The translations under genes were made by a program, and so were the position numbers. 64,000 nt of DNA from Rhizophagus irregularis (lineage: Eukaryota > Glomeromycota > Glomeromycetes > Glomerales > Glomeraceae), in the NCBI RefSeq assembly GCF_026210795.1, contig NC_089430.1, positions 5,518,001 through 5,582,000 of the forward strand, given 5' to 3'. Positions 10,634 to 48,213 of the stretch are shown here, piece by piece (position 1 is the first letter of the stretch; each line of letters begins with the position of its first letter). The notes below the pieces were generated by a model. It saw only the letters and a list, made by a program, of their open reading frames with translations. It ran no database searches and was not told the origin of the DNA.

Positions 10634-10689
10634 TAATTTTATACTGAAATTTTTATAAAGGATATATTTGCAAGAGAAACCAAAATAAG

Positions 10690-17949: not shown

Positions 17950-18740
17950 TAATAAAAGGTTTTTATCATAAAATCATTGAAATTAATACATTTTAATAAT
18001 TTTGAAACCATTCTAAATGAATGGATAAATAATAAATTTGAAAATGATTATAAAAATCCAAAAATTATTTTAAAAATAATGAAAAATGATCATGAAAAAA
18101 GTAAAATTTGGTTCTCAAGTTTAATTGGTTTAGGTTGTGATATTAATAAAAAACTAACTTTAGACTTTTACCTTTTGGCTATTAATAATGAGATTGAAAT
18201 TGATAAATTATACCGAAGTTTCAGATAGTTTTGGTATAATTATATATGAAGTAATTTCTGGATTACCTCATATCAGCCATGATCAATATTTGGCAATAAA
18301 AATTTTTCAAGGACTTAGACTAAGGTTTAAGATTAAAGTACTCAATTTATTGTTAATTTGCTTAGATACAAACCCATTAAATCGACAAACAGCAAAAGAA
18401 ATTTATAAAATTTTTGACCTATGGAGTTTATAAACAGGATTACGAGAACAAATTAGAAAAACGGTCGGAATAAACAACAATTGATCAAATAATAGAATAC
18501 CTTAGGATTATCGGATTATACTATAAAATACATTCGGAAGCCGTTTATGAAAGTCATTAACTGAGAAATTCTGATGATTATTATGAACGAAATGATAATA
18601 TAATTAGACATTAATTAACACGAAATTGCCAGGTATTAATTAAGCACTTTTAATATTATAATTTATAATAATCATACTAATAATTAAATTTTAATTTATT
18701 AAACAGAATATTTACAAATTAATATTTCTTAATTAATAAT
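17950..18740 (+). pseudogene. Chimeric relic: Sel1-type linker joined to kinase C-lobe
   Basis: The 5' part (about 17977-18225) reads HFNNFETILNEWINNKF...WFSSLIGLGCDINKK...FYLLAINN, the sequence usually found before Sel1 repeats in Rhizophagus proteins. It then runs, with a frame change near 18215, into SFGIIIYEVISGLP and LNRQTAKEIY, the C-terminal part of a kinase C-lobe. Stops follow from 18431, but decayed matches continue to the kinase tail, including a GCCAGGTATTAATTAA donor-like site near 18629 and a decayed microexon near 18705-18735. The HRD and DMG parts are missing. It is best read as a deletion joining two family members; no function is expected. Confidence 0.7.
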
Positions 18741-20394
18741 AATTAAAATGGTTATATAATATCTTTAATTTATTTTTCTTTCATACTTGAATGTTAAAAT
18801 AGCGAATATTATGCAAAGAAAAATCTTAGAATAAAATTATAATTTTCTATTAGGCTATTCCCAAATATTTTTTATTGGCAAATTTGTTGTTAAATCAAAA
18901 GTTAAATGAGTAAATATACCAAAAAAGCCGTATTTACAAATAGAAGAAAAACTATAAATTATTATATTTTATTGCTAGAATTTCTTAATTTACAGAGTGT
19001 TCATACACATATCACGTGACTTTATAAAATAATTTATGTAAAAAATTTTTTAATAAATATAATTTTAATTTTAAATGAAACATATGATATGTGTATTTTG
19101 TTCTGCGAGTTTACTTAAAGCGTCAAAGTCGGTTTAAATGATCTGGTTTTTCGTTAATTTAACTGTTAATGCGATTTATAACTGCCCAACATTAAATGAT
19201 CAGCATAGAAAATTTACTTTTTGTGTTTGAAACACCCCGAAATCGATAAATACACGTTCATGCTAGTATATTATAAACTAGTATTTTAAGTTAATAAATA
19301 AAATCATGTGTTAATTGTGTTACATGATCAATAAAATTTCAATCTTTTCACGAATGAGTATTTCTTTTATTATTATTAATCTTACCATCAACGTCAGTAT
19401 ATCATCGAGTTGACCAAGGCTGATAAATTCTTTTTTGAAGTAAAAAAGATAAAATTCACATAGAAATCTAAAATTAATGATGTTTGTTTTATTTTATTCT
19501 ATTTATTTATTTATTATTTTTTTTTCCTTTTTTTTTATGACGTTAATTAGATGAAGGCGAAGTGGATATCAGGGCTTTTTAGGAGGTTCTGTTTTTTTTT
19601 TAATCTAGTTTTTTTTTGGTCAGCCTGCTGTGAGTCATGTATACACACGAACCATGACTTAAATTACTATGTCATCAATTTTTTATTGATATATTATGAG
19701 TAGGTGATAGGGATGGAAAAAGCTCCAAATGGAGTGATTTTCGAGGGCAGAACAGCTCAAGTGGAACGAACGGCTTGACGACTCTGAAAGCTAAGCCGGT
19801 CACGTGACGTTATAGAAATTCCAAAAAAGGAAATTTTGCACAGATCATATAATTCCGGCCGGAATTATGAATAACAGAACTGGTTTCTAAACTCTGCTCC
19901 AAACCAGTTTTTGGAGTCAGTTCCACAAATTTGGTTCAGTTCAACTCGTTCCGGTTCGTGGAACTGAAACCGAACCGGTGCAAAATATTCATATGTCAAT
20001 TCATTGGTAATTTTTTTTTGATACCCAATTTTCATGCTTAACATATTTTAATACATAATATTTATTCTAAAGTTTTAAATAGTTTCAGTTACTTTTTACA
20101 ATGGTTTTCACATAATTTTTTACTTTTATTTAACGTCACCCATTTTCTAATTAAATCAAGGAGATGAATATGATTGGCTCTTTTTCAAAATGATCGCCAG
20201 AAGTGATACCATTACACCGCATTTCTTTTGTTATCCGGATTTAGTTTTGTTTTACTAATATTGCATTATATATAATTAGTTCTTATGCTGAGATAAAAAT
20301 TTTTTTTCTTACTCCACTTTTTTTTTATTAGTATTTATTATTAATTACTTATTTTACTTTTAATCAATTCTTATTGAATTTCAAATGAGTCAAA
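18741..20394. other. Upstream region of gene C with one-ended MITE-like sequence
   Basis: No gene seen. A TAGGGATGG end at 19708, the same as the hAT MITE ends elsewhere, is followed to about 19985 by inverted subterminal motifs around GGAACTGAAACCGAACCGG. No matching right end was found, so this is a truncated or degraded element at best. CACGTG occurs at 19013 and 19801. Pyrimidine-rich tracts lie at 19490-19620. Confidence 0.4.
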
Positions 20395-23300
20395 ATGATG
20401 AGGAAATTATTATTGTCATTTCGTAATGACAAATGTGAAAGTTGCGGAAATGATCATTGTTATGTAAAACATTTTCAGAAAAATTTTATAAGTTGGACCA
20501 GTGGCAATGATAATATTGATAAATTTATTCAAGATACTCAGCTATCAGCTCATAATGATGTAAGGAGAGTATTAGAATGGATACCTTATGATAAATTTCA
20601 CAATATCAAACGTATTGCAAAAGGTGAATTTGGAAAAATATATATAGCAAATTGGATTGATGGACGTATAGATAAATGGGATTTTGAAAATCAAAATTGG
20701 AAAAGAGATAATCATAATATGTTTGTAAATTTGAAGAGTTTAAATACTCCAAATAATCTTACATTAGAATTTATAAATAAGGTAGAATAAAACTTATTAA
20801 CTTATTAACAAGATTATAAGTATTTTATTTTTCTAACCGAACATATTATTACATTTGTAGATTAAAATAGATCATGAATTTTATGGAATAACTCGGGATC
20901 CAAAAAAAAAAAATTATATGATGGTTTTGATTGATATATGTGGAGAGTGTAGTAAAATATGTAATTCAATACATTTTCAACAAAATTTCAAGAATTGGGC
21001 TAGTGATAATGATGATGTTGATAAATTTATTCAAGATACTCAGCTATCAGCTCATTATAATGTGAAGAAAGCATTAGAATGGATACCTTATAATGGATTT
21101 TACAATATCAAATATATTGCAAAAGATGAATTTGGCGAAATATATGAGGCAAATTGGATTGATGGAAATATACATTATTGGGATTATGTAAATCAAAATT
21201 GGAAAAGATATAATCATAATATGTTTGTAAATTTGAAAAGTTTAAATATTCCAGAAAATCTTACATTAGAATTTATAAATAAGGTATGATAAACTTATAA
21301 CTTGTTAACAAGATTATAAGTATTTTATTTTTCTAACATATTATTACATTTGTAGATTAAAATAGATCATGAATTTTATGGAATAACTCAGAACCCAGAA
21401 ACAAAAAATTACATGATGGTTTTGAATAATATATGTGAAAAGTGTGATGAAGTATGTAATTCAATATATTTTCAACGAAATTTCAAAAATTGGACTAGTG
21501 ATAATGATGATATTGATAAATTTATTCAAGATACTCAGCTATCAGCTCATTATGATGTAAAGAAAGCATTAGAATGGATACCTTATGATAAATTTCACAA
21601 TATCAAACATATTGCAAAAGATGAATTTGGCGAAATATATATAGCAAATTTGATTGATGGAAATATAAGTTATTGGAGTTATTGGGATTATGCAAATCAA
21701 AATTGGAAAAGAACTAATCATAATATGTTTGTAAATTTGAAAAGTTTAAATACTCCAGAAAATCTTACATTAGAATTTATAAATAAGGTATGATAAACTT
21801 ATTAACTTATTAGCAAGATTATAAGTATTTTTTTTCTAACATTATTGTTACATTTGTAGATTAAAATAGATCATGAATTTTACGGAATAACTTGGGATCC
21901 AAAAAAAAAAAATTATATGATGGTTTTGAATAATATATGTGAAGAGTGTAATAAAATATGTAATTCAATATATTTTCAACGAAATTTCAAAAATTGGACT
22001 AGTGATAATGATGATATTGATAAATTTATTCAAGATACTCAGTTATCAGCTCATAATTATGTAAAGAAAGCATTAGAATGGATACCTTATGATAAATTTC
22101 ACAATATCAATCATATTGCAAAAGGCGAATTTGGCGAAATATATATAGCAAGTTGGATTGATGGAAATATGAGTTATTGGGATCATGCAAATCAAAATTG
22201 GAAAAGAGATAATCGTAATATGTTTGTAAACTTGATGAGTTTAAATACTCCAGAAAATCTTACATTAGAATTTATAAATAGGGTATGAAAAACTTATTAA
22301 CTTATTAACAATATTATAAGTATTTTTTTTTTCTAACATATTATTACATTTGTAGATTAAAATAGATCATGAATTTTATGGAATAACTCGGAATCTAGAA
22401 AAAAATAATTATATGATGGTTTTGAATAATATATGTGAAGAGTATAAAGAGTGTAATAAAATATGTAATTCAATATATTTTCAACGAAATTTCAAAAATT
22501 GGACTAGCGATAATGATGATATTGATAAATTTATTCAAGATACTCAGTTATCAACTCATAATGATATAAATAAAGCATTAGAATGGATACCTTATGATAA
22601 ATTTCACAATATCAAACGTATTGCAAAAGGTGAATTTGGAAAAATATATATAGCAAATTGGATTGATGGACGTATAGATAAATGGGATTTTGAAAATCAA
22701 AATTGGAAAAGAGATAATCATAATATGTTTGTAAATTTGAAGAGTTTAAATACTCCAAATAATCTTACATTAGAATTTATAAATAAGGTATAATAAACTT
22801 ATTAACTTATTAACAAGATTATAAGTATTTTATTTTTCTAACTGAACATATTATTACATTTGTAGATTAAAATAGATCATGAATTTTATGGAATAACTCG
22901 GGATCCAAAAAAAAAAAATTATATGATGGTTTTGATTGATATATGTGGAGAGTGTAGTAAAATATGTAATTCAATACATTTTCAACAAAATTTCAAGAAT
23001 TGGGCTAGTGATAATGATGATATTGATAAATTTATTCAAGATACTCAGTTATCAGCTCATAATGATATAAATAAAGCATTAGAATGGATACCTTATGATA
23101 AATTTCACAATATCAAACGTATTGCAAAAGGTGAATTTGGAAAAATATATATAGCAAATTGGATTGATGGACGTATAGATAAATGGGATTTTGAAAATCA
23201 AAATTGGAAAAGAGATAATCATAATATGTTTGTAAATTTGAAGAGTTTAAATACTCCAAATAATCTTACATTAGAATTTATAAATAAGGTATAATAAACT

Positions 23301-25225
23301 TATTAACTTATTAATAAGATTATGAGTATTTTATTTTTCTAACTGAACATATTATTACATTTGTAGATTAAAATAGATCATGAATTTTATGGAATAACCC
23401 GGGATCCCAAAAAAAAAAATTATATGATGGTTTTGAATAATATATGTGAAGAGTGTAATAAAATATGTAATTCAATATATTTTCAACGAAATTTCGAAAA
23501 TTGGACTAGCGATAATGGTGATATTGATAAATTTATTCAAGATACTCAGCTATCAGCTCATAATGATGTAAATAAAGCATTAGAATGGATACCTGATGAT
23601 AAATTTCACAATATTAAACATATTGCAAAAGATGAATTTGGCGAAACATATATAGCAAATTGGATTGATGGAAATTTAAGTTATCGGAGTTATTGGGATC
23701 ATGCAAATCAAAATTGGAAAAGAGATAATCGTAATATGTTTGTAAATTTGAAAAGTTTAAATACTCCAGAAACTTTTACATTAGAATTTATAAATAATGT
23801 ATGATAAAATTTTTGACTTATTAACAAGATTATAAGTATTTTATTTTTCTAACATATTATTACATTTGTAGATTAAAATAGATCATGAATTTTATGGAAT
23901 AACTTGGGATCCAAAAAAAAAAAATTATATGATGGTTTTGAATAATATATGTGAAGAGTGTCATAAAATATGTAATTCAATATATTTTCAACGAAATTTC
24001 AAAAATTGGACTAGTGATAATGATGATATTGATAAATTTATTCAGAATACTCAGCTATCAGCTCATAATGATGTAAAGAATGCATTAGAATGGATACCTT
24101 ATGATAAATTTCACAATATCAATCATATTGCAAAAGATGAAGTTGGCGAAATATATATAACAAATTGGATTGATGGAAATATGCATTATTGGAATTATGT
24201 AAATCAAAATTGGAAAAGAAAGAATCATAATATGTTCGTGAATTTGAAGAGTTTAAATACCACAGAAAATCTTACATTAGAATTTATAAATAAGGTATGA
24301 TAAACTTATTAACTTATTAACAAGTTAAGTATTTTATTTTTCTAACATATTATTACATTTGTAGATTAGAATAGATCATGAATTTTATGGAATAACTTGG
24401 GACCCAAAAAAAAAAATTTATATGATGGTTTTGATTGATAATAAGTGTAAAAAATGCAATTATGCATGTAATGCAATACATTTTCAACGAAATTTTGAAA
24501 GTTGGACTAGTGGTAATAAAGATGTTGATAAATTTATTCAAGATGCTCAATTATCAGTTCATAAAGATGATGAAATATCACACGTACTAGAATGGATACC
24601 TTACGATAGATTTTATGGTATTAAATATATTGTAGAAAATAATATATACAAAGCAAATTGGATTGATGGATGTATAGATAAGTTGGATGATGAAAACCAT
24701 AAATTGAAAAGGTGTAATCAAAATATGTTTGTAACTTTGAAAAATTTGAATAATTCAAATAATGTCACATCAGAATTTATGAACAAGGTAATAAATATAT
24801 GCTATTATTTAATAAAATTCATTTTTACTAATATATTATATTTTTAGATTAAAATAGATCATGTGTTTTATGGAATAACTCAGGATGCGGAAACAAAAAG
24901 TTATATGATGGTATTGGAAGATATATGTGAAAAATGTAATTATGTGTGCAATGCAATAAATTTTCAAAGAAATTTCAACAATTGGACTAGTGGTAATAAT
25001 GATATTGACAAGTTTATTCAAGATACTCAGCTATCAGCACATTATAATACTGAAGCATTAGAATGGATACCTTATGATAAATTCCATGATATCAAATATA
25101 TTGCAAAAGGTGGACATGGTAAAGTATATAAAGCAGTTTGGGTCGATGGAAAATATCAAAATATGCTTGTAGCTTTAAAAAGTATAAATAATTCAAAAAA
25201 TATTACATTTGATTTTATGAATGAG
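20395..25225 (+). repeat. Tandem N-lobe exon array of gene C with a four-unit higher-order repeat
   Basis: Ten units of ~500 bp. Units 1-4 pair with units 5-8 at about 2.0 kb spacing. Unit 1 and unit 5 end in the same residues. Units 2 and 6 share the MMVLIDICGECSKIC head. Units 3 and 7 share the extra SYW insertion. Units 4 and 8 share NINHIAK. The intron between units 1 and 2 is almost identical to that between 5 and 6. Unit 9 is different: its KCKKCNYACNAIHF head and DDEISH linker are of the gene A/B type. Confidence 0.8.
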
Positions 25226-26476
25226 GTATTACAATGTATTCATTTTTTTGATTTGAATATTTAAAATTTAATTTCCAATTGACATTTTTTTTTATACTTA
25301 GATTGCAATACATAGTAAATTTAGTGATTTTGAAAATTTTACTATCGGGTTTTATGGAATAACTCAAGATCCAAATACAAAAGATTATATTATGGTTTTA
25401 AAATATGCGGATGATGGAAGCTTACGAAATTACTTAAATACAAATTATAATAAATTAAATTGGAATAGAAAAATTAGTCATTTACTTGAAATTGCACGTG
25501 GACTTGATTATATTCATGAAAATAAATTTATTCATCGAGATTTACATAGTGGAAATATTCTAATGTCTATAATTAAGGTATGGATAGCTGATATGGGATT
25601 ATGTAAACCAGCAGATTATAATCCATCGGAAGGTGCAAAAAATAACATATATGGCGTTTTGCCTTATATTGCTCCTGAAATTTTAAGAGGACAAAATTAT
25701 ACAAAAGCTTCAGATATCTATAGTTATGGTATAATTATGTATGAAATAATTTCTGGATTACCTCCATATCATGATATTGGTCATGATGAAAATTTAGCTA
25801 TAAAAATTTGTAAAGGACTCAGACCGAGGTTTAATATTAAAGTACCTCAATTGATTGTTTATTTAATTAAAAGATGCTTAGATGCAAATCAGATAAATAG
25901 ACCAATGGCAAAAGAAATTAGCGATATTTTATACAAATGGCAGTATAAAAGAAGTGATAGTCAAACAGTTGAATTACAAAAACAAATTAAAGATGCAGAA
26001 GGAATAAATAACAATTCAACAAAAGATAGTATTCCTTTGACTAATTTAGGATCATCATATAAAACACATTCCGAAGCGATTTATACAAGTAGACTACTTA
26101 AGTTTAATAATCTTCCCGAACCAAAAAATTCCGATGATTACTATAAACATACTGATAACATAATAAGTTTAGAATTTTCAGGTATTTTTAACGAAAAAAA
26201 AAATATTTAGAATAATTATTAAAGAATGTTACTAAAATATTACTTATTATTAAATAGCATCGTTGTCTCAACAAATTGATGTTTCTCAATTGAACATCAA
26301 TGATATTAATCATAAATCAAAAGATTTTAATTTTGAACAAAATGATGACATAACGAGCATGGAATATTCAGGTATTAATTTAATACTTACAAATTAGTAA
26401 GATTTATAAATACTAACCTAATTTTATTTTGTTAATTTGTTAAATAGAATCATTACAAATTGATATTTCACAATAA
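20395..26476 (+). CDS. Giant kinase gene C: 10 tandem N-lobe exons plus one catalytic lobe
   Basis: Exons: 20395-20781, 20861-21283, 21356-21787, 21860-22282, 22356-22787, 22866-23288, 23367-23798, 23872-24294, 24365-24787, 24848-25225, 25302-26181, 26258-26371, 26448-26476. They join into an open frame of 1733 codons including the stop. Repeat introns are phase 0 and 60-79 nt. They run from GTATGATAAACTT-like donors to ACATTTGTAG acceptors. Units 1-8 keep partial loops such as AKGEFGKIYIANW or AKDEFGEIYIANW and mostly retain the beta3 Lys (VNLKSL); unit 4 has Met instead. Unit 10 is intact (AKGGHGKVYKAVW, VALKSI). The start is uncertain: an ATG at 20385 opens MSQNDEEIIIVIS but meets a stop, so the ATG at 20395 was taken. 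Role inferred: TKL-like signalling kinase with an N-terminal pseudo-N-lobe string, probably cytosolic (no signal peptide or membrane segment). Confidence 0.8.
24848..26181 (+). other. Intact kinase catalytic domain of gene C
   Basis: Exon 24848-25225 carries the complete N-lobe (GGHGKVYKA loop, VALKSI, alphaC DFMNE). Exon 25302-26181 carries FYGITQDPNTK, hinge LKYADDGSL, HRDLHSGNIL, IADMGLCKP, VLPYIAPEIL, DIYSYGIIMYE, and the tail EPKNSDDYYK, ending LEFSG at a phase-1 donor. All core catalytic residues are present. The N-lobe exon is shorter (378 nt) because the insert between ANWIDG and beta3 is reduced. Confidence 0.85.
26258..26476 (+). repeat. Two terminal exons of gene C related to the microexons of A and B
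   Basis: Exon 26258-26371 (114 nt, phase 1 on both sides) encodes ASLSQQIDVSQLNINDIN and then a stretch ending DITSMEYSG, echoing the LEFSG end of the preceding exon. Exon 26448-26476 encodes ESLQIDISQ and stops at TAA 26474-26476. Acceptors are TTAAATAG as in A and B. The longer middle exon looks like a microexon fused to a duplicated piece of kinase tail. Confidence 0.7.
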
Positions 26477-32423: not shown

Positions 32424-34793
32424 ATGAAAGATGATACAATCACACCGGATGAAGGAAATCTTCGTTCATCTAGAGCTAGTGGAAGTGAAATTTTAAACAA
32501 TATTAATTCAGGTATTATTATTGTTATCATTTATTATATTATTATTACGATATTTTTTTTTTTTTTTATAAATATTTATAAAGTTTAAACATATCTTTAA
32601 TATTTTTTTTTCAATTTTACTACAATAAATCGACTAGTACTGAGAAATAGACAACGTCAACCTTCTGTACAATCTCAACCTACTGTTTATAACCAATTTA
32701 TTATACAAATTGATCAATATAAACACAAAATATATACTTACGGAAAATTACCATTTTTGATTATTTTAATTCCCGTAATAGCATATGTAAGTAATTATTC
32801 TTGATACGCGAAAACTTTAATAATAGTTCGTATTAATTTTCATTAATAACTGATATATTTGAATTTACCTCAAAGATATTTTACAGATTCAACACCCCGA
32901 AGCCGTCTCAATTACCATTATCGGATATTAACGCACCAGCCATACTCTTAATCGGAAAAGCGGGTATGCCTTGATATCATTGTCTTTCTTTTCAATGAAT
33001 TAACTTTTTTTTTAATTGAAAATATACTTTACATTTGCTTGAAAGGCGCTGGCAAAAGTACATTAGGAAATTTATTGTTGGGAACCTATGAAGATGAAAA
33101 ACCGACTTTCAATTTCTCTGATAGCTTTGTAAGTAAAAAAAAAAATGTATTCGAGTTTAAATAATTTCATTTACATTAGTTTCTAATTTTAAATGATTAG
33201 TCAACGGTTACTCAGAACTCTAGCTTTGCGAGGATTCAAATTGGTGATGAAAATTATAACATTGTCGATACGCCAGGAATTTTTGACACTGATAACCCCA
33301 ACGAAGTTGTCCTAGAAAAAATTTCTCGAACCATCCAAAAATGTGCTTATGGGATTAAAGCCATATTATTTGTAATTGGTGTGTGAGAATATAGAATATA
33401 CATAATTGCATTCATGATAGAGAGTATAATATATTTAAAATATTTAAAATGTTGTTTATATAGAAGCAAAACGGTTCACGATAGAACAAAAGGAAATGGT
33501 CGACAGAATAAAATTATTTCTAGGAAAAGAGTCTCTCCAATACATGATTTCTGTCTTTTCCCATTGTAGTCGTAAGCAGACCGAAGATCTTGAGTATTTT
33601 AAAAAGTTTTCTTGGAATCAGGAAATAAAGGCTTTCGTCAATTCCATGGGTAGTCGGTGGGCCATTTCTCCGAATCCAGAAAGTTACCCACCTAATAATC
33701 CTGTACGTAAGCAACGCCTCGAAGATTTAAAAAATCATATCGTCTCTATAGATGGAAAATATACGAATGAATTGCTCGAAAAGGTACGGGAAAAACAAGA
33801 AGAAAATGAAAGAAAAACGAGAGAAGAGGAAGTGAAACGACAAAAAGAATACGATGAAAGTAAAAAGAGAGAAGGCGAAGCTATTGCAAGGAAAAATTAT
33901 GAGAAGCAGAGAGCAGAAGATGAGAGAAAAGCAAATGAAAGACGAAAAATGGAAATAAAAAATATTAAGGATACTTTACTTATACAAATAAATATCCTAA
34001 GTGAGAAGGTGGCTAATCTAACCAAGGATAATGAGAGCCTTAATGAGAAAGTGGCTAATCTTACCAAGGAACACGAAAGGGGAGAACACGAAAAGGCTGA
34101 ACACGAAAAGGCTAAAGAGAATCAAAATTGTTTTGGGCTTGAGACACAAGTCGAACTTGAATCAGGAAGGATTATTCAAATGTCAGAACTTAAAACAGGA
34201 GATCGGGTGTTATCAAACATAAGAAATGGTATTGCTGAATACTCTGAAGTTTGTCTTATTGCTCATATTGGTAAACTCGAACATGAAGAGGAATTTGCTA
34301 AAATCAGCTTTACTAGACCGGATGGATCTAAAGGCATTTTATTTATTAGATTTATTGTGATTTACTAAAGAATAAATTGTTTACTTATTTTATCCATTTT
34401 CACATTTTTTAGGTCAATTACGGCTTACAACTACTCATTATGTCTTTGATGAAAATTTATCGATCATACTTGCCAAAGATCTGCGTCCCGGAGAAACAAA
34501 AATATTGGTATCAAATGATAACAATAAGCTAGTTTCAGTCTTTGTGGATGATGTAACAATCGTAAGTTTTAATCTATTTTTAAAATTATTAATACTGTAA
34601 AAGTTATTAATCACCTTGATATTTTAAACAGGAATTGCATGATAAGTACATTCGTTTCCACACACGAGCTGAGTCAGTTATCGCCGATGGTGTACTTTGT
34701 TCCTGTTATGACCAATGTCCACCGTCTCAAACGCTCATGGATTTGGTTTTTTTACCGATACGTTTGTGGACTTATTTTATACCAACCAAGTAG
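32424..34793 (+). CDS. GIN1: GIN1-like protein: AIG1-type GTPase, coiled coil and hedgehog-like Hint domain
   Basis: Eight exons: 32424-32511, 32638-32786, 32876-32963, 33046-33128, 33201-33378, 33464-34333, 34413-34561, 34632-34793; total 588 aa. A hydrophobic segment (about residues 66-79) could be a membrane anchor. The G domain has a P-loop across an exon junction (GKAGAGKS, 106-113) and DTPG (159-162), the AIG1/GIMAP type. Residues ~300-415 are a charged coiled coil with the repeat EKVANLTK. The Hint domain starts at Cys418 (CFGLETQVELESG), has the TxxH motif (TTTH, His494), and ends near ADGVLCSCYD. Hint domains self-splice or self-cleave, with the first Cys as nucleophile. The architecture matches GmGIN1, described from a mycorrhizal Glomus with hedgehog-like C-terminus. 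Exon 6 needs a GC donor; otherwise the protein ends within the Hint domain at 34368. Confidence 0.85.
34334..34412 (+). other. Proposed GC-AG intron in the Hint coding region
   Basis: No GT donor in the right phase lies before the stop at 34366-34368. AAG|GCATTT gives phase 1 and joins to TTTTTTAG|GTCAATTACGG. The result reads DGSKGQLRLTTTHYVF, which rebuilds the TxxH block. Its 79-nt length fits the other introns. Confidence 0.6.
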
Positions 34794-36960: not shown

Positions 36961-37367
36961 TTAATATTTACTATTTTCATTAATATTCAATTGAGAAATA
37001 TTGAGTTGTAAAGAATCTATTTAATAAATTAAGACTTATTGTTAGTATTTATGAATTAAGAATATTTTAAAGTCGTTATATTTACCACTCTCATTAATAT
37101 TCAACTGAGAAATGTTGATTTGTAAAGACTCTATTTAATGAATAAATATTTATTATTTGTATTTTATAAACTAAGTATCTTAAAGTTATTATATTTACCA
37201 TTCTCATTAGTACTCAATTGAGAAATATTACGCCGTAAAGATTCTATTTAATAAATTAATATTTCATTATCAGTAATCATAAACTAGGTATTTTAAAGTT
37301 ATACCACAAGTAAAATATTTACCTTTCTTATTAATATTCAATTGAGAAAACCTAAGTTGTAAAGATT
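36961..37367 (-). repeat. Four tandem phase-1 microexons, gene B tail
   Basis: 37367-37323, 37243-37199 and 37130-37086 are 45 nt each; 37016-36961 is terminal with TAA at 36963-36961. They encode variants of the 15-residue repeat: ESLQLRFSQLNINKK, ESLRRNISQLSTNEN, ESLQINISQLNINEN, and DSLQLNISQLNINENSKY. Copy number and order match gene A, so the microexon amplification came before the A/B duplication. Confidence 0.75.
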
Positions 37368-40300
37368 CTATTTAATAAAAAGTTTATTATTAGTATAATA
37401 TTAACTAAATATATTTACAAAAGTAACAATTAATATATTGCTTAACGGTAATACCTGAAAATTCCTTGCTTATTATATTATCACTTCGCTCATAATAATC
37501 ATCAGAATTTTTTGGTTTGGGAAGATTATTAAAATTAAGCAATCTACTTGTATAAATAGCTTCCGAATGTGTTTTATATAATAATTCTAAACTAGTCTGC
37601 GTATTTTCAGTTAATAATTTATTATTTATTACATCTGCTTTTTCAATTTGTCTTTGTAATTCTGTATCATATGATAATTGTGATGGGTCAAAAATTTCAT
37701 AAATTTCTTTTGCTGTTGGTCTATTTAATGGGTCCGAGTCTAAACATCTTTTAATTAAATGCATAATTAACTGTGGTACCTTAATATTAAATCTTGGTCT
37801 AAGCCCGTGACAAATTTTTATTGCTAAATGATTATTATGGCTCACATCATAATATGGAGGTAATCCAGAAATTATTTCGTACACTATTATACCAAAACTA
37901 TAAATATCAGCAGCTTTAGTATAATAATTCCTTCCTCTTAAAATTTCAGGAGCTATATATGGCAAAACACCATATGCACAGTTTTTTTTATTTTCTGATG
38001 CATTATAATTTGCAGGTTTACATAATCCCATATCAGTTATTTTTATGTAATTATTATTTATTAGTATATTGCCAGTATGCAGATCTCGATGAATTAGTTC
38101 ATTTTCATGAATGGTTCTAAGCCCAAATGCAATATCACATAAATATGTAATCTTATTGAACCAATTTAATTCATTGAATCTTGTATTTAAAAAATGCCGC
38201 AAACTTCCACTGTCTGCATATTCCAAAACCATAATATAATTTTCTGTTTCTGGATCTTGAGTTATTCCATAAAGTTTTATAATAATACCTCCACTTACTC
38301 TACTATGTAATTTAATCTATATATAAATGTAAATAAATAGTATTTTAATTATTAATAATAAATTAAATTGAATTAAATAAATGCACTATACCTCATTCAT
38401 AAATTCCGATGTGACATTTTTTGAATTATTTAAACTTTTCAGAGCTACAAACATATTCTGATCTTCTCTTTTCCAATTTTGATTTTCATCATCCCAACTA
38501 TTTCGGTACATTATACATCCATCAATCCAATTTGCTTTATACACTTTGCCAAACCCACCTTTTGCAATATATTTAATATCATAAAATCTATTATACGGAA
38601 CCCATTCTATTACATTATATGTGCGATTATGAGCTAACAACTGGCTATCTTGAATAAATTTGTCAATATCATCATTACCGCTAGTCCAATCTATGAATTT
38701 ATGTTGAAAGTGTATTGCATTACATATATTGTTACACTTTTTACATTTATTATTAAAAACCAACATATAATTTTTTGTCTCAGAATCCTGAGTTATTCCA
38801 TAAATTTCATGATCTTTTCTTATCTACAAATATAGTATATTTATTAATAAACTAATTAAAAATTTCATTTAATAATTAAATTAAAAATACTGTACCTCGT
38901 TCATGAATTCTATTGTAATTTCTTTTGAATTATTTAAACTTTTTATATTTAAAACCATCTTCTGAATTTTTCTGTTCCAATTTTGATACTTATCATCCCA
39001 TTTACATATTCTTTCATCAATCCAATTTGCTCTATATACTCCAATTTTTTCAATATATTTGATATTATAAAATCTATCATAAGGTATCCATTCTAATGCA
39101 TGTGATATTTCATTATCTTCATGGACTGATAGCTGAGTATCTTGAATAAATTTATCAATATCCTTATTACCACTGGTCCAATCTATAAATTCATGTTGAA
39201 AATGTATTGTATTACATATGTAATCACATTTTTTACACTTGTTGTTAAAAATCATCATGTAATATTTTGTTTCTAAATCCTGAGTTATTCCATAAATTTC
39301 ATGATCTTTTCTTATCTACAAATAGTATAATTATTAACTAAAATTTAAAATTTTCATTTAAAAATTAAATTAATTATACTGTACCTCATTCATGAATTCT
39401 ATTGTAATTTCTTTTGAATTATTTAAACTTTTTATATTTACAACCATTTTCTGAAAATTTCTGTTCCAATTTTGATATTTATTATCCCATTTACATATTC
39501 TTCCATTAATCCAATTTGCTCTATATACTCCAATTTTTTCAATATATTTGATATTATAAAAGCTATCATAAGGTATCCATTCTAATGCATTTGACATTTC
39601 ATTATCTTTATGAACTGATAGCTGAGTATCTTGAATAAATTTATCAATATCTTTATTACCACTGGTCCAATCTATAAATTTATGTTGAAAATGTATTGTA
39701 TTACATATGTCATTACATTTTTTACATTTACTATTAAAAACCATCATGTAATATTTTGTTTCTGGATTCTGAGTTATTCCATAAATTTCATGGTTTTTTC
39801 TTATCTACAAACGTAGAATAATTATTAATAAACTAAAATTCAAAATTTTCACTTAATACTAATAATAATTAATTATACTTTACCTCATTCATAAATTCTA
39901 TTGTAATTTCTTTTGAATTATTTAAACTTTTAATGTTTACAACCATATTTTGATTATATCTGTTCCAATTTTGATATTTATCATCCCATTTATATATTTT
40001 TCCATCAATCCAATTTGCTCTATATACTCCAATTTTTTCAATATATTTGATATTATAAAATCTGTCAAAAGGTATCCATTCTAATACTTCTTTGAATACT
40101 TCATCATTATTATGCATTGATAGCTGAGTATCTTGAATAAATTTATCAATATCTTTATTACCACTAGTCCAATTTTTAAAATATTGATGAAAATATATTA
40201 AATTACGCATGTATTTACATTTTTCATATATATAATTCAAAACCATCGTGTAACATTTTGTTTCTGGATTCTGAGTTATTCCATAAATTTCATGATTTTT

Positions 40301-43300
40301 TCTTATCTACTAACATAGTACAATTATTAGTAAACTAAAATTCGAACTTTTCATTTAATAATTAAATTAATTATTCTGTACCTCATTCATGAATTCTATT
40401 GTAATTTCTTCTGAATTATTCAAACTTTTTATATTTACAATCATATTTTCATATCTGTTCCAATTTTGATTATAACTATTCCATTCATATATTTTTCCAT
40501 CAATCCAATTTGCTCTATATTCTCCAATTTTTTCAATATATTTGATATTATAAAATCTATCATAAGGTATCCATTCTAATGCATTTAACATTTCATTATT
40601 TTTATGAACTGATAGCTGAGTATCTTGAATAAATTTATCAATATCATCATTACCACTGGTCCAATCTATGAATTTATATTGAAAGTATATTACATTACAT
40701 ATGCTACTACATTTTTTACATTTATTATTAAAAACCATCATGTAATATTTTGTTACTGGATCCTGAGTTATTCCATAAATTTCATGATCTTTTCTTACCT
40801 ACAAATATAGTACAATTATTAATAAACTAAAATTCAAAATTTTTATTTAATAATTAAATTAATTAAACTGTACCTCATTCATGAATTCTATTGTAATTTC
40901 TTTTGAATTGCTTAAACTTTTTATATTTACAACCATTTTTTGAACATTTCTGTTCCAATTTTGATATTTATCATCCCATTTACATATTCTTCCATCAATC
41001 CAATTTGCTCTATATACTCCAATTTTTTCAATATACTTGATATTATTAAATCTATCATAAGGTATCCATTCTAATGCATTTGATATTTCATTAATGTTAT
41101 GAACTGATATCTGAGTATCTTGAATAAATTTATCAATATCATCATTACCACTAGTCCAATCTATGAATTTATATTGAAAGTATATTGCATTACATATGCT
41201 GTTACACTTTTTACATTTATTTTTAAAAACCATTATGTAATATTTCGTTTCTGGATCCTGAGTTATTCCATAAATTTCATGGTCTTTTCTTATCTACAAA
41301 TATAGTATAATTATTAATAAACTAAAATTCGAAATTTTCATTTAATAATCAAATTAATTATACTGTACCTCATTCATGAATTCTATTGTAATTTCTTTTG
41401 AATTATTTAAACTTTTTATATCTACAACTATATTTTGATTACATCTGCTCCAATTTTGATTATGATTATCCCATTTAAATATTTTTCCATCAATCCAATT
41501 TGCTCTACATGCCCCAATTTTTTCAATATATTTGATATTATAAAATCTATCATAAGGTATCCATTCTAATGCATCTTCAAATACATAATTATAATGTGTT
41601 GATAGCTGGGTATTTTGAATAAATTTATCAATATCTTTATTACCACTGGTCCAATCTATGAATTTATATTGAAAGTATATTGCACTACATATGCTATTAC
41701 ACTTTTTACATTTATTATTAAAAACAATCATGTAATATTTTGTTTCTGGATCCTGAGTTATTCCATAAATTTCATGGTCTTTTCTTGTCTGCAAATATAG
41801 TATAATTATTAATAAACTAAAATTCAAATTTTTCATTTAATAATTAAATTAATTATATTATACTGTACCTCATTCATGAATTCTATTGTAATTTCTTTTG
41901 AATTATTTAAACTTTTTAAACTTACAACCATATATTGAACATTTCTGTTCCAATTTTGATATTTATCATCCCATTTACATATTCTTCCATCAACCCAATT
42001 TGCTCTATATACTCCAATTTTTTCAATATATTTTATATGATAAAATCTATCATAAGGTATCCATTCTAATGCATGAAACATTTCACTATCTTTATGAACT
42101 GACAACTGAGTATCTTGAATAAATTTATCAATATCTTTATTACCACTGGTCCAATCTATAAATTTATGTTGAAAATGTATTGCATTACATATGTAATTAC
42201 ATTTTTTACATTTATTATTAAAAACTATCATGTAATATTTTGTTTCTGGATCCTGAGTTATTCCGTAAATTTCATGATTTTTTCTTATCTATAAATATAG
42301 TATAATTATTAATAAACTAAAATTCGAAATTTTCACTTAATAATTGAATTAATTATATTGTACCTTATTCATAAATTCTATTGTAATTTCTTTTGAATTG
42401 CTTAAACTTTTTATATTTACAACCATATTTTGATCAAATCTACACCAATTTTGATTATTTCCTTCATCCCATCCTTCTATTTTTCCATCAACCCAATTTG
42501 CTTTATATACTCCAAATTTTTCAATATATTTGATATTATTAAATCTATCATAAGGTATCCATTCTAATGCATTTGACATTTCATTATTATCATGTGCTAA
42601 TAACTGAGTATCTTGAATAAATTTATCAATATCTTTATTACCACTGGTCCAATCTATAAATTCATGTTGAAAATGTATTGTATTACATATGTAATCACAT
42701 TCTTTACATTTATTATTGAAAACCATCATGTAATATTTTGTTACTGGATCCTGAGTTATTCCATAAATTTCATGATCTTTTCTTATCTACAAATTTAGTA
42801 TAATTATTAATAAAATAAAACTCAAAATTTCATTTAATAATTAAATTAATTATATTGTACCTCACTAATGAAATCTATAGTAATTTCTTTTGAATTATTT
42901 AAACTTTTTATATTTACAACCATATTTTGATCATATCTGTCCCAATTTTGATTATGGCTATCCCATTCATATATTTTTCCATCAATCCAATTTGCTCTAT
43001 ATTCTCCAATTCTTTCAATATATGTGATATTATAAAATCTGTCAAAAGGTATCCATTCTAATACTTCTTTGAATACTACATCATTATTATGCATTGATAG
43101 CTGAGTATCTTGAATAAAATTATCAATATCTTTATTACCACTGGTCCAATCTATGAATTCATACTGAAAATATTCTGTATAATATATGTAATCATATTTT
43201 TCACATTTATAATTAAAAACCATCATGTAATATTTTGTTTCTGGATCCTGAGTTATTCCATAAATTTCATGATCTTTTCTTATCTATAAATATAGTATAA

Positions 43301-46300
43301 TTATTAATAAAATAAAATTAAAAATTTTCATTTAATAATTAAATTAATTATACTGTACCTCATTCATGAATTCTATTGTAATTTCTTTTGAATTATTTAA
43401 ACTTTTTATATTTACAATCATTTTCTGAACATTTCTGTTCCAATTTTGATATTTATCATCCCATTTACATATTCTACCATCAACCCAATTTGCTCTATAT
43501 ACTCCAATTTTTTCAATATATTTTATATGATAAAATCTATCATAAGGTATCCATTCTAATGCATGAAACATTTCACTATCTTTATGAACTGACAACTGAG
43601 TATCTTGAATAAATTTATCAATATCTTTATTACCACTGGTCCAATCTATAAATTTATGTTGAAAATGTATTGCATTACATATGTAATTACATTTTTTACA
43701 TTTATTATTAAAAACTATCATGTAATATTTTGTTTCTGGATCCTGAGTTATTCCGTAAATTTCATGATTTTTTCTTATCTATAAATATAGTATAATTATT
43801 AATAAACTATAATTCAAAATTTTATCTAATAATTAAATTAATTATACTGTACCTCATTCATAAATTCTATTGTAATTTCTTTTGAATTATTTAAACTTTT
43901 TATATTTAAAACCATTTTCTGAACATTTCTGTTCCAATTTTGATATTTATCATCCCATTTATATATTCTTCCATCAACCAAATTTGCTCTAGATATTCCA
44001 ATTTTTTCAATATATTTGATATTATAAAATCTTTCATAAGGCATCCATTCTAATGCATTTGGCATTTCATTATCTTTATGAACTGATAGCTGAGTATCTT
44101 GAATAAATTTATCAATATCTTTATTACCACTAGTCCAATCTATGAATTCATGTTGAAAATGTATTGTATTACATATATAATCACATTTTTTACATTTATT
44201 ATTAAAAACCATTATATAATATTTTGTTTCTGGATCCTGAGTTATTCCATAAATTTCATGATCTTCTCTTATCTACAAATATAGAATAATTATTAATAAA
44301 TTAAGATTCAAATTTTCACTTAATACTAATATTAATTACTGTAATTATACTTTACCTCATTTATGATCCCTATTGTAATTTCTTTTGAATTATTTAAACT
44401 TTTAAAATTTACAATCATATTTTCATATCTGTTCCAATTTTGATTATAATTATTCCATTCATATATCTTTCCATCAATCCAATTTGCTCTATATACTCCA
44501 ATTTTTTCAATATATTTGATATTATAAAATCTATCATAAGGTATCCATTCTAATGCATTTGACATTTCATTATTTTTATGAACTGATAGCTGAGTATCTT
44601 GAATAAATTTATCAATATCATCATTACCACTGGTCCAATTTATAAATTCATGTTGAAAATGTATTGTATTACATATGCTATTACATTTTTTACATTTACT
44701 ATTAAAAGCAATCATGTAATATTTTGTTTCTGGATCCTGAGTTATTCCATAAATTTCATGATCTTTTCTTATCTACAAATATAGTATAATTATTAAATAA
44801 ATTAAATTCAAAATTTCATTTAATAATTAAATTAATTGTACTGTACCTCGTTCATGAATTCTATTGTAATTTCTTTTAAATTATTTAAACTTTTTAAATT
44901 TACAATCATTTTCTGAACATTTCTGCTCCAATTTTGATATTTATCATCCCATTTATATATTCTTCCATCAGCCCAATTTGCTCTATATACTCCAACCTTT
45001 TTAATATATTTGATATTATAAAGTTTATCATAAGGTATCCATTCTAATGCATTTGATATTTCATTATCTTTATGAACTGATAGCTGAATATCTTGAATAA
45101 ATTTATCAATATCATCATTACCACTGGTCCAATCTATGAATTTATATTGAAAGTATATTACATTACACATGCTATTACATTTTTTACATTTATTATTAAA
45201 AGCAATCATGTAATATTTTGTTTCTGGATCCTGAGTTATTCCATAAATTTCATGATCTTCTCTTATCTACAAATATAGAATAATTATTAATAAACTAAAA
45301 TTCAAAATTTTCATTTGATACTAATAATAATTAATGATACTTTACCTCATTTATGAATCCTATTGTAATTTCTTTTGAATTATTTAAACTTTTTATATTT
45401 ACAACCATATTTTGATAATATCTGCACCAATTTTGATGATAATCCCATTCACACATTTTTCCATCAACCCAATTTGCTATATATACTCCAATTTTTTCAA
45501 TATATTTGATATTATAAAATCTATCATAAGGTATCCATTCTAATGCTACCTTAAATACATCATCATAATCATGTGCTAATAACTGAGTATCTTGAATAAA
45601 TTTATCAATATCTTCATTACCACTGGTCCAATCTATGAATTTATATTGGAAGTGTATTGCATTACATATGTAATCACATTCTTTACATTTATTATTGAAA
45701 ACCATCATGTAATATTTTGTTTCTGGATCCTGAGTTATTCCATAAATTTCATGATCTTTTCTTATCTACAAATATAGTATAATTATTAATAAACTAAATT
45801 CAAAATTTTCATTTAATACTTAAATTAATTATACTGTACCTCGTTCATGAATTCTATAGTAATTTCTTCTGAATTATTTAAATTTTTTATATTTACAACC
45901 AAATTTTGGTAAAATCTACACCAATTTTGATCATACCATTCACACATTTTTCCATCAACCCAATTTGCTCTATACACTCCAATTTTTTCAATATATTTGA
46001 TATTATAAAATCTATCATAAGGTATCCATTCTAATGCTACCTTAAATACATCATCATTATTATCATGTGCTAGTAACTGAGTATCTTGAATAAATTTATC
46101 AATATCTTTATTTCCACTGGTCCAATCTATAAATTCATGTTGAAAATGTATTGTATTACATATGTAATCACATTTTTTACATTTATTATTAAAAATCATC
46201 ATGTAATATTTTGTTTCTGGATCCTGAGTTATTCCATAAATTTCATGATCTTTTCTTATCTACAAATATAGTATAATTATTAATAAATTAAAATTAAAAA

Positions 46301-48213
46301 TTTTCATTTAATAATAAAATTAATTATAATGTACCTCATTTATGAATTCTATTGTAATTTCTTTTGAATTATTTAAACTTTTTATATTTATAATCATATT
46401 TTTATATCTGTTCCAATTTTGATTATCATTATTCCATTCATATATTTTTCCATCAATCCAGTTTGCTCTATATACTCCAATTTTTTCAATATATTTGATA
46501 TTATAAAATCTATCATAAGGTATCCATTCTAATACATATGATATTTCATTATCTTCATGAACTGATATCTGAGTATCTTGAATAAATTTATCAATATCTT
46601 TATTACCACTTGTCCAATCTATGAATTCATGTTGAAAATGTATTGCATTACATATGTAATTACATTTTTTACATTTATTATTAAAAACCATTATGTAATA
46701 TTTTGTTTCTGGATCCTGAGTTATTCCATAAATTTCATGGTCTTTTCCTATCTACAAATATAGTATAATAATTAATAAACTAAAATTCAAAATTTCATTT
46801 AATGATTAAATTAATTATACTGTACCTTATTCATGAATTCTAATGTAATTCCTTTTGAATTATTTAAACTTTTTATATTTATAACCATATTTTTATATCT
46901 GTGCCAATTTTGATTATAATTATTCCATTCATATATTTTACCATCAATCCAATTTGCTATATATACTCCAATTTTTTCAATATATTTGATATTATAAAAT
47001 CTATCATAAGGTATCCATTCTAATGCATGTGATATTTCATTATCTTCATGAACTGATAGCTGAGTATCTTGAATAAATTTATCAATATCATCATTACCAC
47101 TGGTCCAATTTATGAATTCATGTTGAAAATGTATTGTATTACATATGTAATTACATTTTTTACATTTATTATTAAAAACCATTATGTAATATTTTGTTTC
47201 TGGATCCTGAGTTATTCCATAAATTTCATGGTCTTTTCTTATCTACAAATATAATATAATTATTAATAAACTAAAATTCAAAAATTCCATTTAATAATTA
47301 AATTAATTATACTGTACCTCATTCATGAATTCTAATGTAATTTCTTTTGAATTATTTAAACTTTTTATATTTATAACCATATTTTTATATCTGCTCCAAT
47401 TTTTATAATAATTATTCCATTCACATATTTTTCCATCAATCCAATTTGCTCTATATACTCCAATTTTTTCAATATATTTGATATTATAAAATCTATCATA
47501 AGGTATCCATTCTAATGCATTTGACATTTCATTATCTTTATGAACTGATATCTGAGTATCTTGGATAAATTTATCAATATCTTTATTACCACTGGTCCAA
47601 TCTATGAATTTATATTGAAAGTATATTGCATTACATATGCTGTTACACATTTTACATTTATTATTAAAAACCATCATGTAATATTTTGTTTCTGGATCCT
47701 GAGTTATTCCATAAATTTCATGGTCTTTTCTTGTCTGCAAATATAGTATAATTATTAATAAACTAAAATTCAAATTTTTCATTTAATAATTAAATTAATT
47801 ATATTATACTGTACCTCATTCATGAATTCTATTGTAATTTCTTTTGAATTATTTAAACTTTTTAAACTTACAACCATATATTGAACATTTCTGTTCCAAT
47901 TTTGATATTTATCATCCCATTTACATATTCTTCCATCAAGCCAATTTGCTCTATATACTCCAATTTTTTCAATATATTTGATATTATAAAATCTGTCATA
48001 AGGTATCCATTCTAATGCACTTGATTTTCCACATTTGGTATGATCTGATAGCTGAGTATCTTGAATAAATTTGTCAATATCTTTATTGTCACTGGTCCAA
48101 TTTATGAAATTTTGTTGAAAACGTATTGCATAACATATGTAATTACATTTTTCACATATATTATTTAATTCTTTATTAATATAAGACGGTTCAATTGGTT
48201 TTTTTTTATCCAT
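36961..48213 (-). CDS. Giant kinase gene B: 20 tandem N-lobe exons plus one catalytic lobe
   Basis: Exons: 48213-47815, 47734-47318, 47242-46826, 46751-46335, 46259-45840, 45765-45346, 45266-44847, 44772-44356, 44272-43853, 43778-43359, 43283-42861, 42786-42364, 42288-41869, 41788-41369, 41293-40874, 40798-40382, 40306-39884, 39804-39385, 39315-38896, 38823-38392, 38316-37455, 37367-37323, 37243-37199, 37130-37086, 37016-36961. All 20 unit exons are multiples of three and the splice gives 3146 codons with no internal stop. The start is MDKKKPIEPSYI. Units 1-19 read YIEKIGVYRANW where a glycine loop should be, yet every unit keeps the beta3 Lys (NIKSL or SLKSL). Unit 20 is intact. The catalytic exon (862 nt, same length as in A) and four microexons follow. 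Likely a TKL-family signalling kinase; the string of pseudo-N-lobes may be a scaffold, sensor or regulatory arm. No signal peptide or membrane segment in exons. Confidence 0.85.
37455..38823 (-). other. Intact kinase catalytic domain of gene B
   Basis: N-lobe exon 38823-38392 carries AKGGFGKVYKANW and VALKSL. Catalytic exon 38316-37455 carries LEYADSGSLRHFL, HRDLHTGNIL, ITDMGLCKP, VLPYIAPEIL and DIYSFGIIVYEIISG. It ends KEFSG at a phase-1 donor. It is very close to gene A over the same stretch. Catalytic residues are complete. Confidence 0.88.
38392..48213 (-). repeat. Tandem array of 20 N-lobe exon units, gene B
   Basis: Unit spacing is about 490-500 bp including a ~65-80-nt intron. Most heads start IRKDHEIYGITQDPETKYY, then a C-x2-C-x3-C head (KCKKCNYIC), the IDWTSGNKDIDKFIQDTQLS linker, LEWIPYDRF and ANWIDG. 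Homogenisation is visible: units 10 and 13 have the same head through WNRNVQ; units 1 and 13 have the same tail including the intron start; units 2 and 14 share an unusual TCTGCAAAT acceptor region. All exon lengths fall in 399-432 nt. Confidence 0.9.

What the first reader, a model, noticed from the sequence alone, without database searches (positions are those of the whole stretch)
36961..48213. A kinase gene built from 20 tandem N-lobe exons and only one catalytic lobe
Seen: 20 homologous phase-0 exons in a row, each encoding beta4-beta5, a Cys head, the FIQDTQ linker and beta1-beta3-alphaC. They are followed by a single C-lobe exon, and the spliced frame of 3146 codons is open. Known: protein kinases normally have one N-lobe per C-lobe, and the single-copy form of this family is common in Rhizophagus. 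Inference: the protein is a string of circularly permuted pseudo-N-lobes ending in one active kinase, perhaps a scaffold, ligand-binding array or regulated autoinhibitory arm. I know of no described protein of this kind.
Basis: partly seen in the sequence, partly recalled or inferred. Interest (0 to 1): 0.93.

Follow-up and report, generated by a model that had tools for sequence, protein, structure and literature searches.

The report
Kinase preceded by dead half-kinase repeats
This fungal gene would make a very large protein in which one complete protein kinase follows a string of nineteen disabled copies of half a kinase, and at least two dozen other genes in the same genome are built the same way, an architecture I found no description of.

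Summary
On the minus strand, 48213 to 36961, 25 GT-AG exons join into 3,145 codons plus stop. Exons 1-20 carry a Cys head, a helix and strands b1-b3-aC; exons 2-20 also begin with b4-b5. Exon 21 is the only catalytic lobe; exons 22-25 are a small repeated tail.
Correction: only the exons are out of register. The spliced protein has the normal order, 19 head+N-lobe modules, then one complete kinase; it is not circularly permuted.
It is a family. In 27 arrays checked (3 in the window, 24 chosen elsewhere in this genome) one catalytic lobe follows the last unit. Only that unit keeps an ATP-binding N-lobe: first Gly 27/27 against 12/242 others; VAxK Ala 26/27 against 1/242. The dead modules also lack about nine aC-b4 residues. 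Open frames and dN/dS near 0.64 show coding constraint.
Likely role (inferred): a multivalent, ATP-independent binding or regulatory arm on an active kinase, grown by unequal exchange of a symmetric exon. Transcription as one mRNA, the fold and the function are untested.

The parts
47815..48213 (-). Exon 1: ATG, short leader, Cys head, WTSDN/FIQDTQ helix, b1-b3-aC of module 1
38896..47734 (-). Exons 2-19: 18 fused exons (b4-b5 of one module + head and b1-aC of the next), 417-423 nt, phase 0-0, introns 69-83 nt. Exons at 47318-47734, 46826-47242, 46335-46751, 45840-46259, 45346-45765, 44847-45266, 44356-44772, 43853-44272, 43359-43778, 42861-43283, 42364-42786, 41869-42288, 41369-41788, 40874-41293, 40382-40798, 39884-40306, 39385-39804, 38896-39315
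   Evidence: Gly loop reduced to EKIGVYRA-type, VAxK Ala replaced
38392..38823 (-). Exon 20 (terminal unit): b4-b5 of module 19, then head, intact KGGFGKVYKANW Gly loop, VALK, aC of the live kinase
37455..38316 (-). Exon 21: b4-b5 and the only catalytic C-lobe (IHRDLHTGN, DMG); Pfam PF07714 3e-41 as an exon, 5.3e-50 when joined to exon 20
36961..37367 (-). Exons 22-25: four tandem tail micro-exons (37323-37367, 37199-37243, 37086-37130, 36961-37016), 15-residue repeat, stop codon at 36961-36963
   Evidence: related micro-exons genome-wide

Best explanation
A large (about 381 kDa, no membrane-like segment) tyrosine-kinase-like protein kinase with one competent kinase domain near its C-terminal end, preceded by 19 tandem modules of about 140 residues. 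Each module is a Cys head, a strongly conserved helix, and a kinase-type N-lobe that has lost its ATP-binding motifs. SHOWN by sequence: the anatomy, the one-live-N-lobe rule in 27 arrays, coding constraint, and homogenisation of internal units within each array while the terminal unit mostly stays apart. INFERRED: all exons are joined in one mRNA. The modules still fold, but they have given up both ATP (Gly loop and adenine-pocket Ala) and the aC-b4 contact that normally seats an N-lobe on its C-lobe, so they work as a multivalent, ATP-independent binding arm that recruits partners or clusters the kinase and so controls the one active domain. The array grew because the fused exon is symmetric (phase 0-0): unequal exchange adds or removes whole modules without shifting the frame. 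Origin (inferred): tandem kinase genes with the C-lobe deleted in between, fusing the start of one gene's C-lobe exon to the head of the next gene's N-lobe exon.
For: Gene model. The 19 fused units align end to end with 80% mean column identity. In 27 arrays the unit before the C-lobe (defined by position) has the first Gly in 27/27 and the Ala in 26/27; other units 12/242 and 1/242; b3 Lys 27/27 against 209/242. One C-lobe right after the last unit and none inside, in 27 of 27. C-lobe motifs: HRD in 25/27 (HQD in L003 and L019) and D(M/L)G in 27/27 (its script's own count of 23 HRD missed FHRD in L022 and L023, which its listing shows). aC-b4 segment 3-12 residues in fused exons (234 measurable of 242) against 15-19 in 27/27 C-lobe exons. 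dN/dS 0.64 within arrays, below 1 in 25 of 27, linker helix 0.32, terminal units 0.43. By lenient tests, a phase-0 donor at the end of 259/269 units and a phase-0 acceptor near the start of 238/242. Nearest relative of a terminal unit is another array's terminal unit in 17/27; of a non-terminal unit it is its own array in 184/242. Mosaic unit 13 = exon 10 (100% over its first two thirds) + exon 1 (99.3% over the last third). Best 19-residue hydrophobicity mean 1.23, inside the C-lobe.
Against: No transcript or protein evidence was available. AlphaFold2 of a non-terminal exon unit gave pLDDT 46; the terminal-exon control was equally poor (43.4), so fold retention is neither shown nor excluded. 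A domain-order module matches no Pfam family, and the unit profile matches no PDB chain convincingly. dN/dS of 0.64 is weak constraint, and 2 of 27 arrays are at 1.02-1.03. The tree without the trait columns shows no single terminal clade (14 changes), and 10 of 27 terminal units are nearest to a non-terminal unit, so the terminal/internal split is not clean. Lys is kept in 209/242, so complete loss of nucleotide contact is not proven. Val at the Ala position occurs in solo kinases L027 and L029 with intact Gly loops, and Phe but not Val there is reported to block ATP in KSR1 (passages of PMC12721161); counting Val as tolerated, 19/242 non-terminal units would pass at that site.
Confidence: 0.55

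Rival explanations
1. Splicing reservoir: the symmetric exons are cassettes that are skipped in varying numbers (or chosen one at a time, as in Dscam), so the cell makes kinases with arms of different length or with different N-lobes.
For: Exons 2-20 are phase 0-0, so any can be skipped without a frameshift. A few units carry stops or frameshifts that skipping would remove (3 of 262 near-full-length hits with a stop, plus at least two frameshifted units among the shorter hits).
Against: One-at-a-time choice would join each exon directly to the C-lobe, yet 230 of 242 non-terminal units lack the first Gly of the loop and 241 of 242 lack the Ala, so the product would probably be a dead kinase. 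Skipping of cassettes is not excluded.
Confidence: 0.15
2. Autoinhibition or lobe exchange: a non-terminal N-lobe replaces the true N-lobe on the C-lobe and switches the kinase off.
For: Modules are clear homologues of the true N-lobe (terminal unit against other units of this gene 62-72% identical) and sit in the same chain.
Against: In fused exons the aC-b4 segment is 3-12 residues (234 measurable of 242) against 15-19 in the live kinases (27/27); that segment normally packs on the C-lobe (general kinase knowledge, recalled). One such lobe would do; up to 19 are not needed.
Confidence: 0.12
3. By-product: the array is an unstable coding minisatellite. Upstream exons are neutral, or are not in the mature mRNA, and only exon 20 + 21 make the working kinase.
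For: Array length differs between close paralogues (8 against 6 units with terminal exons 93.9% identical; 20 against 16 with 91%). Internal dN/dS is fairly high. Array B in the window holds one unit with a stop and one with a frameshift.
Against: About 218 of 242 units should contain a stop if unconstrained, but 3 of 262 near-full-length hits do. Splice signals are kept by lenient tests in 259/269 and 238/242. The linker helix is at dN/dS 0.32. Decayed module pieces lie nearby and do carry stops (window about 50.1-52.0 kb).
Confidence: 0.12
4. Allosteric activator: the modules work like KSR or HER3, pairing side to side with the N-lobes of other kinases and switching those on, so one protein could activate several kinases.
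For: Replacement of the adenine-pocket Ala (by Phe) is the change used to separate scaffolding from catalysis in KSR1, BRAF and CRAF (passages of PMC12721161). Rhizophagus irregularis is reported to have 2,533 kinase genes as possible partners (passages of PMC10234402).
Against: No structure and no interface data. The modules have no C-lobe and a shortened aC-b4 segment, whereas the known allosteric pseudokinases are two-lobed (recalled). Phe is rare at the site here (3 of 215 internal units and none of 27 first units listed with F).
Confidence: 0.15

Closest known systems
Two-exon (solo) kinases of the same fungal family, e.g. loci L026, L027, L029
   Same: Same kind of head, S-G/C-N..D helix, EWI.Y motif, N-lobe exon / C-lobe exon split
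   Different: One N-lobe exon with an intact Gly loop, no fused exons, longer head with two CxxC
Kinases with a pseudokinase domain in the same chain (JAK/TYK2, GCN2; plant tandem kinase proteins)
   Same: A dead kinase-like part joined to a live kinase (recalled; TYK2 is among the PDB hits of the joined kinase; tandem kinase proteins seen only in a search listing)
   Different: There the dead part is a complete two-lobed domain; here it is only the N-lobe, in up to 19 copies, each with its own Cys head
KSR1/RAF with the adenine-pocket Ala replaced (PMC12721161, passages only)
   Same: ATP binding lost through the Ala of VAxK while non-catalytic functions can remain
   Different: Engineered single residue in a two-lobed domain; here natural, mostly to Ile, Asn, Thr, Val or Asp, with Gly-loop and aC-b4 losses as well, and without a C-lobe
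Tandem symmetric-exon arrays (Dscam exon clusters, titin; recalled)
   Same: Many homologous exons of one phase in a row
   Different: Exon borders fall inside the domain, and almost only the last copy keeps the ancestral motifs

Membership tests
Eukaryotic protein kinase (exon 20 + 21) | Match to the kinase domain model | tested here: met
   PF07714 5.3e-50, 170.6 bits against a cut-off of 23.1; PDB kinases down to 3e-29
Eukaryotic protein kinase (exon 20 + 21) | Gly loop, VAxK Lys, HRD, DFG Asp | tested here: met
   KGGFGKVY, VALK, IHRDLHTGN, DMG
Eukaryotic protein kinase (exon 20 + 21) | Catalytic activity | not testable with these tools
   needs an assay
TKL group of kinases | Placement within TKL on a kinome tree | not tested
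   no tree was built; PDB hits mix TKL (Roco4, TAK1, RIPK1) with tyrosine kinases (EGFR first, TYK2, Eph)
Pseudokinase domain (non-terminal modules) | Loss of nucleotide-binding or catalytic motifs | tested here: met
   first Gly absent in 230/242, VAxK Ala absent in 241/242
Pseudokinase domain (non-terminal modules) | Two-lobed kinase domain recognisable by a kinase model | tested here: not met
   no C-lobe between units in 27 of 27 arrays; no Pfam match of an exon unit or of a domain-order module
Tandem kinase protein (plant type) | Two or more complete kinase or pseudokinase domains | tested here: not met
   one C-lobe per gene
Mutually exclusive exon cluster (Dscam type) | Each exon alone gives a usable domain | tested here: not met
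   motif-competent units are almost only the terminal ones
Mutually exclusive exon cluster (Dscam type) | One exon per transcript | not testable with these tools
   no RNA data held

The most novel reading that the evidence does not exclude
A new class of tandem-repeat protein: kinase N-lobes without C-lobes, turned into a repeat array that diversifies by whole-exon gain and loss and in its loops. It would serve as a rapidly evolving multivalent recognition arm wired to one live kinase, in dozens of genes, a fungal counterpart of the repeat arms of immune or self/non-self receptors.
Probability: 0.3. Interest if true: 0.93.

Novelty: categorically new. Interest (0 to 1): 0.83.

Why it matters
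Protein kinases are thought of as two-lobed units, and the N-lobe has not, to my knowledge, been seen as a free-standing repeat. If these genes are expressed as predicted, half a kinase domain can be turned into a repeat module. The near-strict rule 'only the last copy binds ATP' would be a natural experiment on what an N-lobe needs for ATP and for C-lobe docking. It may also bear on why this symbiotic fungus is reported to hold 2,533 kinase genes (PMC10234402, passages). Several steps are testable at once with existing cDNA and simple protein chemistry.

Tried and rejected
Structure prediction of a non-terminal exon unit with 41 window units gave pLDDT 46. The terminal-exon control with 37 window units gave 43.4. 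Both are unusable, so no fold search was run.

PDB profile search with the unit: four weak hits at E 1.2-1.3, all RNA helicases, taken as chance. No relative in phage records or viral contigs; neither collection is expected to hold fungal genes. Other Glomeromycotina genomes were not available to search.

Rejected: separate short genes (introns of 69-83 nt leave little room for promoters, phase 0 throughout); assembly error as the sole cause (27 arrays, many with their own lesion types, on 7 contigs); Dscam-like choice. A single clade of all terminal units was not recovered by the tree.

Discrepancies and limits told. The listing stops after about 100 places and omits the 25 minus-strand matches that the same pattern has in the window, so I use its counts (112 + 179, reversed control 0) only as a rough size. 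One search scored 150 of 4,136 candidates, so the family size is a lower bound; all but three of the 150 start at query residue 8 or earlier and so span the b5/head junction. clusters only listed hits (67 clusters with at least one hit). The 24 loci were chosen because they had several hits, so they are not a random sample. Of five loci fetched as solo controls, three are solo genes (L026, L027, L029), one is itself an array (L025), and one gave only a C-lobe (L028). In one search two real but partial units were dropped: L009 at 2303 (it has an intact GGFG, but also a stop) and L012 at 3426; three dropped C-lobe exons were not units. First units cut by a locus edge (L005, L006, L007, L021, L022) stayed in the counts. 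The 242 are non-terminal units; the 242 are all units but the first listed of each array, a different set. The splice tests are lenient (a Val codon within a few residues of the domain end; an in-phase AG within a window around the start). One of the three stop-bearing hits (L019) is a first unit whose start may lie in non-coding DNA.

Literature. In the listings no title or abstract start names such proteins; the library holds open-licence papers only, and apart from two papers none was opened. PMC10234402 and PMC12721161: passages only. All others: search listing only.
Full report
WHAT IS THERE. On the minus strand an ATG at 48213 opens a frame that, after removal of 24 introns of 68-87 nt (all GT...AG), runs for 3,145 codons to a stop at 36961. 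Twenty exons of 399-432 nt are homologous; the 19 full-length ones align end to end with a mean column identity of 80%. Each ends in phase 0 after an '...EFMNE'-type end and the next begins with 'IRKDHEIYGITQ' or a close variant. The last of them is followed by one exon of 862 nt with a kinase C-lobe (IHRDLHTGN, DMG; Pfam PF07714 at 3e-41 alone and 5.3e-50 joined to exon 20). The predicted protein is about 381 kDa; its most hydrophobic 19-residue stretch averages only 1.23 and lies in the C-lobe.

THE EXONS ARE OUT OF REGISTER, THE PROTEIN IS NOT. A fused exon carries b4-b5 of one N-lobe, then the Cys head, the helix and b1-b2-b3-aC of the next (strand names by homology to kinases, not from a structure). 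When the exons are spliced, modules 2-19 read head-helix-b1-b2-b3-aC-b4-b5 in 139-141 residues. The 'circular permutation' is therefore a property of the exon borders. The inferred origin is simple. In the two-exon relatives (L026, L027, L029) the intron lies between aC and b4. Deleting a C-lobe between two tandem copies fuses the start of one gene's C-lobe exon to the head of the next gene's N-lobe exon. The result is a symmetric exon that can be gained or lost without a frameshift.

IT IS A GENE FAMILY. One unit searched against the window's own genome (146.7 Mb, 32 contigs) scored 150 of 4,136 candidates; all but three of the 150 start at query residue 8 or earlier and so span the b5/head junction. 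A DNA pattern across that junction gave 112 + 179 matches, with 0 in the reversed control (its listing is incomplete). The listed hits form 67 clusters. The genome is very probably Rhizophagus irregularis DAOM197198: size and contig number are close to GCA_026210795.1 as given in PMC10234402 (146,773,001 bases, 32 scaffolds; passages). Twenty-four clusters with several hits were fetched and added to the three arrays in the window. All 27 have one C-lobe exon directly after the last unit and none inside. A locus fetched as a solo control, L025, turned out to be a deeply diverged array (31-34% identity, four-Cys head) with the same design.

THE ONE-LIVE-N-LOBE RULE. Of 269 units in 27 arrays, the unit before the C-lobe, defined by position alone, has the first Gly of GGFG in 27/27, the VAxK Ala in 26/27 and the b3 Lys in 27/27. 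The other units have them in 12/242, 1/242 and 209/242. The lesions differ between arrays (EKIGVYRA here; SRFGETYRA, AANEYKA, KTEKYRA, KDEFGEVYR elsewhere). Two caveats: Val at the Ala position also occurs in solo kinases with intact loops (L027, L029), so counting Ala or Val gives 19/242; and the 12 with Gly are spread over a few arrays, among them the plus-strand array of the window. A third difference separates two sets of exons without overlap: between splice acceptor and GITQ there are 3-12 residues in fused exons (median 8; 234 measurable of 242, these being all units but the first listed of each array) and 15-19 in C-lobe exons (median 17; 27/27). The dead modules thus have about nine residues fewer around the end of aC and the aC-b4 loop. 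In kinases that segment helps seat the N-lobe on the C-lobe (general knowledge, recalled).

CODING CONSTRAINT. Within arrays, dN/dS of non-terminal units is 0.64 (1,117 pairs) and below 1 in 25 of 27 arrays. Between arrays it is 0.60 (4,000 random pairs), and 0.43 among terminal units (351 pairs). By segment: linker helix 0.32, b4-b5 0.51, Cys head 0.57, b3-aC 0.65, b1-b2 0.68, the two loop-rich segments 0.90 and 0.95. In this gene alone the pooled pN/pS ratio of units 2-19 is 0.73, so the constraint is real but moderate. Random placement of the observed substitutions would put a stop in about 218 of 242 units, against 3 of 262 near-full-length hits; at least two more units, one in array B of the window and one in L012, are frameshifted. 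By lenient tests, phase-0 donors are found in 259 of 269 units and acceptors in 238 of 242.

TWO COMPARTMENTS. With the trait columns removed, the nearest relative of a terminal unit is another array's terminal unit in 17/27, another array's internal unit in 6/27 and an internal unit of its own array in 4/27. For non-terminal units it is their own array in 184/242. A FastTree gave a similar picture (18, 3 and 6 of 27) but no single terminal clade (14 changes). Internal units therefore tend to evolve in concert within their array, while the terminal exon mostly stays out. Unit 13 here is a mosaic of unit 10 and unit 1. Close paralogues differ in unit number: 8 against 6 with terminal exons 93.9% identical, and 20 against 16 with 91%, the leader exon being seen in all four.

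HOW IT MOST LIKELY WORKS. Shown: a kinase with intact motifs at the end of a chain of related modules that have lost the nucleotide-site motifs and part of the aC-b4 segment, yet keep the helix and head. Inferred: the array is an ATP-independent, multivalent binding arm that recruits partners, clusters the kinase, or carries its input; the conserved helix is the shared contact and the loops the variable part. That the change of the adenine-pocket Ala fits a non-catalytic role is an analogy: in KSR1 an Ala-to-Phe change there blocks ATP and keeps the scaffolding function, while Val does not block ATP (passages of PMC12721161); here the replacements are mostly Ile, Asn, Thr, Val and Asp. Rivals are exon skipping, autoinhibition, a neutral array, and allosteric activation of other kinases.

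WHAT IS MISSING. No RNA, protein or interaction data were available. AlphaFold2 failed equally on a non-terminal and on the terminal exon unit (pLDDT 46 and 43), so it says nothing either way. The modules match no Pfam family on their own and no PDB chain convincingly; their N-lobe identity rests on clear homology to the terminal unit (62-72% within this gene). Other mycorrhizal genomes could not be searched. The kinase group (TKL) was not tested by a tree; PDB hits mix TKL and tyrosine kinases.

NOVELTY. No title or abstract start in the listings names N-lobe-only arrays; the library is open-licence only and the papers, two apart, were not opened. Dead kinase domains beside live ones are well known, but as complete two-lobed domains (recalled). 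I rate the architecture as categorically new and its function as open.

Noticed in passing
window about 1870-10700, minus strand: A second array of 16 units in the same window with its own C-lobe and an intact terminal unit. One unit (4277-4696) has an in-frame TAA and another (about 8863-9180) is frameshifted.
   Followed up: partly
window 20389-26207, plus strand: A third array of 10 units with C-lobe; several internal units keep a GEFG loop, so it looks the least degenerate of the three window arrays.
   Followed up: partly
window about 50.1-52.0 kb, and 18164-18430, plus strand: Pieces of N-lobe modules with stops, and a separate C-lobe fragment: what units look like without constraint.
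   Followed up: no
window 36961-37367, minus strand; 63 genome-wide matches with up to 3 mismatches: The 15-residue tail micro-exon (SLQLNISQLNIN type) recurs in the genome, in several places in tandem clusters of 2-4 about 115 bp apart: a second tandem-exon process in these genes.
   Followed up: partly
L025 (G000:C25:1641500-1644500): A deeply diverged array (31-34% identity) with a four-Cys head and the same dead-dead-live order, so the design is either old or arose more than once.
   Followed up: partly
window 33448-34368, plus strand: An open frame that looks by eye like an AIG1-type GTPase tail running into a Hint (intein/Hedgehog-like) start, CFGLETQVELESGRIIQMSEL; not searched.
   Followed up: no
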